Below, in pieces: positions 53,985 through 60,781 of a stretch of DNA of 64,000 bases; the stretch's first letter is position 1, and every line of letters begins with the position of its first letter. The DNA is from Sideroxydans sp. (GTDB lineage: Bacteria > Pseudomonadota > Gammaproteobacteria > Burkholderiales > Gallionellaceae), in NCBI GenBank assembly GCA_027310665.1, contig DAIDAJ010000021.1, positions 36,900 to 100,899 on the forward strand. The letters are read 5' to 3'. The notes beneath the pieces were generated by a model. It made no database searches. It worked only from the letters and a program-made list of their open reading frames with translations, and was not told the origin of the DNA. Made by a program: the position numbers and the translations under genes.

Positions 53985-54674
53985 GTGATGCTTGATAACG
54001 ACATAAAATCCCTGCTGCTGCAATATCCCATGCTGCGCGAGCTGGATGCAGCAGATCGGTCAGCGCTGCTTGCAACAGCGAGCGTGCTGCATCTCTCCGC
54101 CGGGACGATTGTATTTGACGAACGTCAGCCCTGCCAAGGTTTTCCGATGCTGCTATCCGGCAGCATCCGCATCATCAAGTCCTCGGCAAACGGACGCGAA
54201 CTGCATTTGTATCGGGTGTTTCCGGGTGACAGTTGCATCCTCAGCAGCAGTTGTCTGCTCGGGCGTTCGGATTACCATGCGCGCGGAATTACCGAGTCGA
54301 ATACCGTCATTGTTGCGATCTCCCCCGTCATGTTTGAAAGACTGCTGTCGATACACAAGCCGTTCCAGGATTACATCTTCGGCATGTTTTCCGAGCGTCT
54401 CAACGACCTGATGCACTTGCTGTCCGCTGTCGCCTTTCAGAAACTGGACCAGCGACTCGCGGCCCTTCTGGCCAACAAATCCAGTCCTCTTTACACTACC
54501 CATCAGGCACTGGCTGACGAGCTTGGCAGTGTGCGCGTGATAGTCAGTCGTTTGCTGAAGAGTTTTGCCGAACAAGGCTGGATCAGGCTGGGACGGGAGT
54601 ATATCGAGATAGTCGACGTGGGATCTTTAAGCAAATTCAGCTCTCTCTCCAGCGAGTCTGAATATCATTCGTAA
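53985..54674 (+). CDS. Crp/Fnr-family regulator
   Basis: 229 aa; cNMP-binding fold and C-terminal HTH (TTHQALADELGSVRVIVSRLLKSFAEQGWIRLGREYIEI). Confidence 0.92.
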   Translation: MMLDNDIKSLLLQYPMLRELDAADRSALLATASVLHLSAGTIVFDERQPCQGFPMLLSGSIRIIKSSANGRELHLYRVFPGDSCILSSSCLLGRSDYHARGITESNTVIVAISPVMFERLLSIHKPFQDYIFGMFSERLNDLMHLLSAVAFQKLDQRLAALLANKSSPLYTTHQALADELGSVRVIVSRLLKSFAEQGWIRLGREYIEIVDVGSLSKFSSLSSESEYHS

Positions 54675-54917
54675 AATCCGTTCCCGTTTTTTCCAGATAA
54701 TCTTTTCTGCGGTTTCGATATTTGCCAGTTGCGACTTCGTTTGCGGAACCGAATATCGGCTGGTGTCCAATTTTCGTTTATTGATACGCGATCCCTGTTT
54801 GGATGGGCGCCCGGCTGCAATTCTAAAAAATGCGTTAATAACCGACAGGGTGGGAAAAACATGACCCTACTGCAACGCGCGGGTAATCAGCATTCCTGAA
54901 ATGAAAGTCCAAGTTTG

Positions 54918-54933
54918 TGTAACTTTTGTCACA
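54918..54933. promoter_or_regulatory. Candidate Crp-like palindromic operator TGTAA-CTTTTG-TCACA
   Basis: One mismatch to TGTGA-N6-TCACA, in the 0.66 kb gap between the Crp/Fnr gene and the cytochrome gene. Confidence 0.4.
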
Positions 54934-55335
54934 GACCATCACCCCGCCTTAACCTAGCATCCCGCTCAAGTATTGCGAGCGGTTGCAAGTTCGGTTTTGA
55001 TCTCATGGCCCTTCCGGTGCGGTAAGACTTGGAAGATTAAGTGGCTGTATCTCGCCATCAATATCGAATTTCCGGAATGAGATCTGCTCTGCAGGCAAGT
55101 CGAACAAATGTCCCTTGGGCGCGATTCTGTTTCAGGTTCCGCAATCCAGCGGTTCCGGGCTTGCGTTCACGACCCGTGGGCAAAGGGCCAAGTGGCGGCG
55201 TTCAGTCGTCAGTTGTGCCCAGGTATGTGGAGGATGGTCGCCTGGACTTCCCGACAGCGGATCGGTGTGGCGAGGTTCAGGTGCTTCTCTTGAGGATCGT
55301 GTAACACCTGTGTGTTTAAAAAGAAGGGGAGAGAA

Positions 55336-59103: not shown

Positions 59104-59271
59104 GCTGAAGCGGCAACCGGCAAGCGTTATGGCTGTTGATCCGGCATGGTGAAGTATTAACACCGTGCCGGATCAATAGTAATACCCAGGAGGTGGGACA
59201 CCAGGTGCGGTGCAGGCTGTCACTTGGTCAATTGCTGCAGGGATGATGTGTTTTTACATGAGGGGGAGAAC

Positions 59272-60321
59272 ATGGAAACCTTGATGTTGGGATTCATATT
59301 TGGAGCGATTTTGCAGTATGCGCGATTGAACCGGTTCGACACGATAGCCGGTATGGCCGTGCTGCGAAACTTCACGATCGCCAAGACGATCTCGTTTACC
59401 ATCGGCTTGGGAGCGCTCTTGCTGCAAGCGGAGATCTATTTCGGGTGGGCCGACTACCATATCAAGCCCTTGCTCCTGGCCGGTGTGCTGATGGGCGGAT
59501 TGTTGTTCGGCGTGGGCATGGCCATTCTCGGCTACTGTCCCGGCACGGTCGTCATTTCGCTGGGCCAGGGAAACCTGGATGCACTGCCCGGGATCGTCGG
59601 CGGCGTCTGTGGCTCCCTGGTGTTTGCCATCGCGTATCCCTCTCTGACACCGCTACTCGGTTCGAATCTTGGCTTGCTTTCTGTCCATAGCCTGCTGCCG
59701 GACAATACCGCTTTCTGGATTGCGGCCACCGCATTGGCGATTCTGTTCATGGGGATCGCACTGCTGTTGCATCGATTGCAAAATCAAGGGTGGCGTTGGC
59801 TGCATGCCGCGATCGGCCTGGCATTGCTCAACATGCTGCTTGCGTTGCCTTCCGTTGCGGGCCATCCCATGGGAGCGTCGACTGCCTTTTCCTTTGCGGG
59901 CATGTCGCTGACCGGTCTGGGCGATGAATCCTACTGGACGAAGATCGCCGGGCCGGGCGCATGGGAAGCGTGGTTCCTGACAGGCGCCTTTCTGGCGGGA
60001 CTTGCGTTTTCCCTGTACCAGCGGACTTTCCGCATTACCAACGTGCCTGCGTTATGGGTGCGCTACTACGGCCCCAACCCGGCCAAGCGGTTTTCCTGGG
60101 CGTTCATCGGTGGCTTTCTGCTCCTCTTCGGTGCGCGCATGGCGGGTGGCTGTACGTCCGGTCATATCATTTCCGGAGGGATGCAGCTTGCCCTCAGCAG
60201 CCTGTTATTCGCCGTCGTCGTGTTCGTCGCATTCCTGGCAACGGGGCGGATTTTCTATCGCTCGCGAGGGATGGTTTCGGCCTTGTCCTCGTCGCGATCG
60301 CTTGCGATCAACGAGACGTAA
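59272..60321 (+). CDS. YeeE/YedE-family (sulfur-compound) transporter
   Basis: 350 aa polytopic; GVGMAILGYCPGTVVISLGQGNLDALPGIVGGVCGS and GARMAGGCTSGHIISGGMQLALSS. Confidence 0.93.
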   Translation: METLMLGFIFGAILQYARLNRFDTIAGMAVLRNFTIAKTISFTIGLGALLLQAEIYFGWADYHIKPLLLAGVLMGGLLFGVGMAILGYCPGTVVISLGQGNLDALPGIVGGVCGSLVFAIAYPSLTPLLGSNLGLLSVHSLLPDNTAFWIAATALAILFMGIALLLHRLQNQGWRWLHAAIGLALLNMLLALPSVAGHPMGASTAFSFAGMSLTGLGDESYWTKIAGPGAWEAWFLTGAFLAGLAFSLYQRTFRITNVPALWVRYYGPNPAKRFSWAFIGGFLLLFGARMAGGCTSGHIISGGMQLALSSLLFAVVVFVAFLATGRIFYRSRGMVSALSSSRSLAINET

Positions 60322-60424
60322 GCCCCGTAGATATTACCAATCCCGGTCTGGAGATCAGCGGTGCAGAACTGCCGATCAGGCCGGTAAGGATGAGTAATTC
60401 ATGGTTTGAACAGGAGAATGGATC

Positions 60425-60781
60425 ATGAAATCTGTCGTCGTATCACTGGTTTCGGCCGCAAGCCTGATCACGGCCTGTTCTGCAATGGCTACTGATATGC
60501 CTGCTCTGGCCAGGAAAAACAATTGCGTCATCTGTCATTCGATTGACAGGAAGATCGTAGGTCCGGCGTGGATGGATGTTTCCAGGAGGTATAACGGTGC
60601 GACTGTGTACACATACCGCGGAAAAGAATATCCATTGCTTGAAGGATTGGTCATGAAGGTTTCCGGGGGTGGTTCCGGCAACTGGGGCTCGGTGCCAATG
60701 CCGGAAAACATCACGGTCGTAAAAGAAGAGGACATCAGGGAACTTGTAAAATTCGTCTTGGGCCTGGCGAACCGGAATTAG
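60425..60781 (+). CDS. Small monoheme cytochrome c
   Basis: 118 aa with signal; ARKNNCVICHSIDRKIVGPAWMDVSRRY ... MPENITVVKEEDIRELVKFVLGL. Confidence 0.92.
   Translation: MKSVVVSLVSAASLITACSAMATDMPALARKNNCVICHSIDRKIVGPAWMDVSRRYNGATVYTYRGKEYPLLEGLVMKVSGGGSGNWGSVPMPENITVVKEEDIRELVKFVLGLANRN

What the first reader, a model, noticed from the sequence alone, without database searches (positions are those of the whole stretch)
53985..60781. Candidate uncharacterised periplasmic sulfur-oxidation/uptake cluster
Same-strand genes: Crp/Fnr regulator, five-heme cytochrome with a TsdA-like module, orphan type II binding protein, periplasmic DsrE-like protein, YeeE/YedE transporter, small cytochrome c. 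Established: TsdA oxidises thiosulfate to tetrathionate, YeeE imports thiosulfate, DsrE-fold proteins handle persulfides. Inference: thiosulfate or another sulfur oxyanion is bound, oxidised by the cytochrome (electrons to the small cytochrome c), and sulfur is carried by the DsrE-like protein and imported by YeeE. No Sox genes, rhodanese or TusA are nearby. If the host is an iron oxidiser this would be notable mixed-substrate metabolism.
Basis: partly seen in the sequence, partly recalled or inferred. Interest (0 to 1): 0.8.

Follow-up and report, generated by a model that had tools for sequence, protein, structure and literature searches.

The report
Thiosulfate-oxidation cluster in an iron oxidiser
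A freshwater iron-oxidising bacterium carries a small gene set that most likely oxidises thiosulfate outside the cell membrane, built from a fused five-heme enzyme plus a binding-protein/DsrE pair that turns out to accompany several unrelated thiosulfate-oxidising enzymes across bacteria.

Summary
The conserved unit is three genes: an AdhB-like triheme cytochrome fused to a TsdA diheme thiosulfate dehydrogenase, then an orphan binding protein (SBP), then a periplasmic DsrE. This order occurs in 12 of 15 relatives with the fusion. YeeE follows in half of those. The crp gene sits upstream in three, exactly those with a CRP-type palindrome before the operon. The small cytochrome is not conserved.

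The SBP is the informative gene. Of 79 named loci, 71 have an adjacent periplasmic DsrE-type protein or the heme-free Acidithiobacillus thiosulfate dehydrogenase (TSD). Fifty-nine have a tetrathionate-forming oxidase nearby: the fusion, lone TsdA, or DoxDA. TSD is predicted to have a DsrE-like fold. Two cultured relatives that grow on thiosulfate have this fusion as their only TsdA and lack SoxB and DoxD.

Best reading: periplasmic thiosulfate-to-tetrathionate oxidation. Sulfur import by YeeE is plausible but unshown. Thiosulfate use by iron oxidisers and the tsd-sbp-doxDA cluster are already known, so this is a new variant of a known kind. The shared SBP/DsrE module is the new point.

The parts
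53985..54674 (+). Crp/Fnr-family regulator; no N-terminal FNR cysteine cluster; three cysteines (C50, C84, C90) invariant in the two orthologues next to the same cluster
   Evidence: present upstream in 3 genomes
54918..54933 (.). CRP-type palindrome TGTAACTTTTGTCACA (9/10 of TGTGA-N6-TCACA), 418 bp before the cytochrome gene; 10/10 site TGTGACGTATGTCACA in the two other genomes with the adjacent crp gene
   Evidence: none scoring 8 or more in 8 genomes lacking the adjacent crp
55336..57375 (+). Five-heme fusion cytochrome: signal peptide, AdhB-like triheme part (aa ~16-417), TsdA diheme part (aa ~429-666)
56872..56874 (+). Codon of Cys513, the TsdA heme-1 Cys ligand (motif RVNGC); invariant in 30 homologues
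57421..58455 (+). Orphan periplasmic type II binding protein, sulfate/thiosulfate/molybdate-like (SBP_bac_11)
   Evidence: no ABC permease or ATPase nearby
58561..59103 (+). Periplasmic DsrE-family protein with an invariant Cys135
59272..60321 (+). YeeE/YedE-family transporter; Cys89 and Cys294 kept, third cysteine position (residue 21) is Arg here
60425..60781 (+). Small monoheme cytochrome c; not found at this place in relatives, so probably an accessory or a neighbour

Best explanation
The cluster encodes a periplasmic thiosulfate-oxidising system. The TsdA part of the fusion joins two thiosulfates to tetrathionate at its Cys-ligated heme 1. Electrons pass through heme 2 into the attached AdhB-type triheme module, whose relatives hand electrons to ubiquinone or periplasmic carriers. 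The SBP and the periplasmic DsrE form an accessory pair that binds the sulfur anion and holds a Cys-bound thiosulfonate or sulfane group for the oxidase. The same pair, or its counterpart with the heme-free TSD in place of DsrE, serves lone TsdA and DoxDA enzymes elsewhere. A local Crp-family regulator acting on a CRP-type site probably controls the operon. YeeE may import thiosulfate or sulfane sulfur for the cytoplasmic reverse Dsr pathway. Shown here: gene content, catalytic residues, conserved association, sole-TsdA status in thiosulfate growers, regulator/site co-occurrence. Inferred: reaction direction, electron acceptor, roles of SBP, DsrE and YeeE.
For: TsdA module: 4wqc E=8e-49, Cys ligand and Met ligand aligned; Cys513 and Met626 invariant in 30 homologues. 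SBP in 79 named loci: 71 with an adjacent DsrE/DsrE2/TSD, 59 with fusion, TsdA or DoxDA within 5 kb. Oxidase density is 0.138 per kb within 3 kb versus 0.008 per kb at 3-6 kb in the same loci. The same fusion is paired with DsrE in 17 loci and with TSD in 5, and with TSD in one Gallionellaceae genome (L022: NF052225 thiosulfate dehydrogenase, 386 bits, cut-off 300). TSD AFE_0042 makes tetrathionate (PMC6335251). TSD model (pLDDT 86.5): the top three PDB matches are all DsrE/DsrF-like. CL21 grows on thiosulfate; MIZ01 is described as thiosulfate-oxidising. In CL21 sat and aprA lie divergently upstream; soxB and soxY are nearby in another relative. CRP-type site only where the crp gene is adjacent. 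Own genome has DsrA.
Against: No activity or expression data. The heme-2 motif (Asn-Met) resembles the Campylobacter tetrathionate reductase rather than A. vinosum TsdA. Related fusions outside this clade sit beside TtrS/TtrR-like tetrathionate sensors. In S. lithotrophicus ES-1 the separate tsdAB genes were not induced on thiosulfate. Eighteen of 79 SBP loci show no known oxidase nearby, some of them cut short by the contig end. TSD-DsrE fold similarity is below usual E-value significance.
Confidence: 0.7

Rival explanations
1. The fusion is a quinol:tetrathionate reductase. The AdhB-type part takes electrons from quinol and the TsdA part reduces tetrathionate to thiosulfate under low oxygen, with the SBP and DsrE binding tetrathionate.
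For: Asn before the heme-2 Met ligand, as in the Campylobacter jejuni tetrathionate reductase TsdA. Fusions outside the SBP-linked clade are encoded next to TtrS/TtrR-like two-component systems (L032, L130, L131). DsrE3A of Metallosphaera reacts with tetrathionate but not thiosulfate (PMC4175335). A Crp/Fnr-type regulator could respond to redox state.
Against: TtrSR-linked fusions lie outside the strongly supported clade holding most SBP-linked ones. The SBP/DsrE/TSD module goes with DoxDA and TSD, which oxidise thiosulfate. The C. jejuni N254K exchange did not change direction. Host relatives are microaerobic thiosulfate and Fe(II) oxidisers.
Confidence: 0.2
2. The main role is sulfur handling or uptake: SBP, DsrE and YeeE collect thiosulfate or polysulfide for import (assimilation or rDsr), and the cytochrome only recycles or detoxifies thiosulfate/tetrathionate.
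For: YeeE-family proteins import thiosulfate or sulfane sulfur (PMC11582611); its two essential cysteines are kept. Split YeeE (PmpAB-like) genes recur beside the module in L102, L103 and L058. DsrA and several TusA and rhodanese genes exist in the genome.
Against: YeeE is missing from half of the Gallionellaceae clusters and from most SBP loci, whereas an oxidase is near the SBP in most. It is far below the TsuA equivalog cut-off (59 versus 400 bits).
Confidence: 0.25
3. The SBP is a molybdate or sulfate scavenging protein and its position is incidental.
For: ModA profile 54 bits (just under the 62.5 cut-off) and sulfate-binding proteins as nearest solved structures.
Against: No ABC transporter nearby; recurrent placement with DsrE/TSD and thiosulfate oxidases in 71 and 59 of 79 loci from several classes of bacteria.
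Confidence: 0.05

Closest known systems
TsdA diheme thiosulfate dehydrogenase (Allochromatium vinosum, Campylobacter jejuni) and TsdBA fusion (Marichromatium purpuratum, 5lo9)
   Same: C-terminal module with SoxA/TsdA domain, Cys-ligated heme 1 and Met at heme 2; an electron-accepting cytochrome fused N-terminally, as in TsdBA
   Different: The fused partner is a triheme AdhB-type cytochrome instead of TsdB; gene neighbours SBP and DsrE
tsd-sbp-doxDA thiosulfate cluster of Acidithiobacillus ferrooxidans (AFE_0042-0044)
   Same: Homologous SBP next to a periplasmic protein and a tetrathionate-forming oxidase; A. ferruginosus locus L078 shows this layout
   Different: Here a DsrE (PF02635) replaces TSD and the AdhB-TsdA fusion replaces DoxDA; YeeE added
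AdhB-type triheme cytochrome subunits of quinoprotein/flavoprotein dehydrogenases (8gy2, 8hdd, 7w2j)
   Same: N-terminal ~400 residues, three hemes
   Different: No dehydrogenase subunit nearby; fused to TsdA
SoxT/TsuA (YeeE) sulfur importers
   Same: PF04143, about 350 aa, two functional cysteines
   Different: First conserved cysteine absent; well below the TsuA cut-off; no TusA/YeeD partner gene
TtrSR-regulated tetrathionate respiration
   Same: Related fusions elsewhere sit beside TtrS/TtrR-like regulators
   Different: No TtrSR in this cluster; a Crp-type regulator instead

Membership tests
TsdA thiosulfate dehydrogenase/tetrathionate reductase | SoxA-TsdA cytochrome domain and two CxxCH hemes over full TsdA length | tested here: met
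   PF21342 47 bits (cut-off 27); residues 429-666 align to 4wqc at 8e-49
TsdA thiosulfate dehydrogenase/tetrathionate reductase | Cys ligand of heme 1 and Met ligand of heme 2 | tested here: met
   Cys513 and Met626 aligned and invariant in 30 homologues
TsdA thiosulfate dehydrogenase/tetrathionate reductase | Interconversion of thiosulfate and tetrathionate | not testable with these tools
   needs purified protein
AdhB-type triheme cytochrome | Full-length match with three hemes | tested here: met
   8gy2_B E=5e-106 over residues 16-417
AdhB-type triheme cytochrome | Quinone reduction by the cytochrome subunit | not testable with these tools
   quinone-site residues not examined; a paper search on the site found nothing
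Acidithiobacillus TSD (NF052225) | Match of the window's DsrE protein above the equivalog cut-off | tested here: not met
   no match for the window protein, while L022's TSD scores 386 bits
TsuA thiosulfate transporter (NF052577) | Score above equivalog cut-off | tested here: not met
   59 versus 400 bits
SoxT/TsuA-type YeeE | Three conserved cysteines | tested here: not met
   Cys89 and Cys294 kept; residue 21 is Arg here, Cys in three of seven aligned proteins
DsrE/DsrF family | PF02635 with a conserved cysteine in the active-site strand | tested here: met
   36 bits (cut-off 22.7); Cys135 invariant in 16 sequences
Sox system | soxB in genome | tested here: not met
   no SoxB in the 92.6% complete genome
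Thiosulfate:quinone oxidoreductase DoxDA | PF04173 protein | tested here: not met
   none in this genome or 12 relatives

The most novel reading that the evidence does not exclude
SBP plus a periplasmic DsrE-fold protein is a general substrate-loading module that feeds thiosulfate, as a Cys-bound thiosulfonate, to structurally unrelated tetrathionate-forming oxidases (DoxDA, TsdA, AdhB-TsdA). The heme-free thiosulfate dehydrogenase TSD is itself a DsrE-fold member of this module, and the AdhB-TsdA fusion is a cytochrome-based thiosulfate:quinone oxidoreductase.
Probability: 0.3. Interest if true: 0.75.

Novelty: new variant of a known kind. Interest (0 to 1): 0.58.

Why it matters
Tetrathionate formation by iron oxidisers is measured but poorly explained: in Sideroxydans ES-1 tetrathionate is the only product, yet its tsdAB genes are not induced (PMC8788666). 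CL21 and MIZ01 offer a cleaner test, because this cluster holds their only TsdA and they have no SoxB or DoxD. The recurring SBP/DsrE pair gives a testable role to the unexplained sbp genes of the Acidithiobacillus tsd-sbp-doxDA cluster. It also suggests that the heme-free TSD, which reduced neither ubiquinone nor horse cytochrome c in vitro (PMC6335251), works as a DsrE-type thiosulfonate protein beside a membrane oxidase.

Tried and rejected
The first TSD structure model (31 sequences, pLDDT 64) gave no DsrE match; a deeper alignment (88 sequences) gave pLDDT 86.5 and DsrE top hits. hhalign of DsrE profiles against TSD gave only short, low-probability matches, so TSD-DsrE homology is not claimed by sequence. 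Plasmid tblastn with the DsrE found only distant hits. The class-wide search for the fusion found no full-length copy outside the own genome, although protein databases hold thousands of relatives, so that draw was uninformative. Rfam and tRNA scans were empty. Promoter/terminator scans were not above chance. Rejected: one conserved six-gene operon; the small cytochrome as the general electron acceptor. No paper on an AdhB-TsdA fusion was found.

Full report
What is there. The six genes lie on the + strand at 53985-60781. The cytochrome (679 aa from ATG 55336) has five CxxCH motifs. Residues 16-417 match cytochrome subunits of membrane alcohol, glucose and fructose dehydrogenases (8gy2_B 3e-105). 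Residues 429-666 match TsdA (4wqc 6e-48). The active-site features of TsdA are kept: Cys513 in RVNGC aligns with the Cys ligand of heme 1, and Met626 with the heme-2 Met; the residue before that Met is Asn, as in C. jejuni TsdA. Both ligands are invariant in 30 homologues. The SBP resembles sulfate- and molybdate-binding proteins and has no ABC partner nearby. The DsrE (PF02635) has a signal peptide and an invariant Cys135. YeeE keeps Cys89 and Cys294 but has Arg where the first conserved Cys would be.

Host and genome. Close homologues come from Gallionellaceae. G070 and G058 have contigs of 3,772,857 and 2,738,141 bases, the lengths given for Sideroxydans sp. CL21 and Sideroxyarcus emersonii MIZ01. 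The window's genome (92.6% complete) has DsrA, one TsdA (this one), and no SoxB or DoxD. Rhodanese and TusA genes exist on other contigs.

Conservation in the family. Of 15 genomes with the full fusion, 12 have fusion-SBP-DsrE in this order; one has TSD-SBP-fusion (L022); one contig ends before the informative side (L021); one has a TtrS/TtrR-like pair instead (L032). YeeE follows in 6 of the 12 and crp is upstream in 3. A CRP-type palindrome (9/10 or 10/10) stands before the cytochrome gene in those 3 and in none of 8 genomes without the crp gene; the chance of a 9/10 site in a shuffled region of this size is about 2%. The small cytochrome was not seen at this place in relatives.

The SBP as a guide. 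SBPs found in a class-wide search were read first: three of the outside loci (L037, L038, L040) are DsrE-like protein, SBP, DoxDA. A named scan then gave 79 loci from 268 candidates. In 71, a periplasmic DsrE (21), a second DsrE type (6) or a Tat-exported protein (44) is adjacent, all within 400 bases of the SBP core. In 59, a fusion, lone TsdA or DoxDA lies within 5 kb; two more have an AdhB part only, apparently cut by the contig end. Oxidase density is 18-fold higher within 3 kb than at 3-6 kb in the same loci. These loci are related species drawn by similarity, so the counts are not independent events.

The Tat-exported protein is TSD. In Acidithiobacillus ferruginosus (L078) the order is a putative SLAC1-type transporter, TSD, SBP, DoxDA, with a second inverted TSD-SBP-DoxDA set, as described for A. 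ferrooxidans AFE_0041-0050 (PMC2621215 and PMC6335251). The SLAC1 assignment was tested on the L072 copy. AFE_0042 was shown by Kikumoto et al. 2013 (read here only through PMC6335251) to be a tetrathionate-forming thiosulfate dehydrogenase. The Gallionellaceae copy L022 passes the NCBIfam thiosulfate dehydrogenase cut-off. A deep-alignment model of TSD (pLDDT 86.5) has DsrE/DsrF-like proteins as its three best PDB matches (3pnx_A probability 0.82, target-normalised TM 0.55), but with E-values of 0.16 and worse. Profile comparison links only the strand with the conserved Cys. Some TSD records bear the JGI name DsrE/DsrF family. I treat the shared fold as likely, not shown.

Physiology. Sideroxydans ES-1 turns thiosulfate into tetrathionate only. 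CL21 grows on thiosulfate and S(0), and MIZ01 is described as thiosulfate-oxidising. In both CL21 and MIZ01 the fusion is the only TsdA, with no SoxB and no DoxD. In CL21 sat and aprA are divergent upstream; in G066 soxB and soxY are within about 6 kb.

Direction. A tree of fusions places all SBP-linked ones except L102 and L103 in one clade (support 1.0, 33 sequences) and the TtrSR-linked ones outside it. Most members of the clade have Met or Leu after the catalytic Cys where the others have Phe. With the DoxDA/TSD association this favours oxidation, but reduction stays open because of the Asn-Met motif and because one DsrE (Metallosphaera DsrE3A) reacts with tetrathionate and not thiosulfate.

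Verdict. An ordinary-looking but informative thiosulfate oxidation cluster. What is new is the AdhB-TsdA fusion as a sole TsdA in thiosulfate-growing iron oxidisers and the recurring SBP/DsrE-type module across unrelated oxidases. The enzyme type, the tsd-sbp-doxDA cluster and mixed iron/thiosulfate metabolism were known before.

Noticed in passing
L130 5881-10575; L131 5968-10518; L032 525-5088: Fusion cytochromes outside the SBP-linked clade are followed by TtrS/TtrR-like two-component genes (TtrS model 306-333 bits for L032 and L130, below the 750 cut-off), suggesting tetrathionate sensing.
   Followed up: partly
L129 5752-8004 (Cupriavidus metallidurans pMOL30): An AdhB-TsdA fusion on a heavy-metal resistance plasmid with no SBP, DsrE or sensor genes beside it.
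   Followed up: no
L102 from 6909, L103 from 4457, L058 from 2714: Split YeeE genes (PmpAB-like pairs) next to the SBP/fusion module in distant lineages, an independent recurrence of YeeE-type transport.
   Followed up: partly
L056, L061, L066: DsrE divergently transcribed from the SBP, with no thiosulfate oxidase seen in the stretch read; RND efflux-like genes follow in L061 and L066.
   Followed up: no
L019 2428-7000 and 14885-15352: In Sideroxydans sp. CL21 the cluster sits between sat/apr genes and a DrsE_2-family gene, a small sulfur-oxidation island.
   Followed up: partly
window 50599-53820, - strand: Large Cache-PAS-PAS-GGDEF-EAL protein divergent from the crp gene.
   Followed up: no
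fusion proteins, residue after the catalytic Cys: Met or Leu in most of the SBP-linked clade, Phe in other fusions and in A. vinosum and M. purpuratum TsdA; a candidate determinant of catalytic bias.
   Followed up: partly
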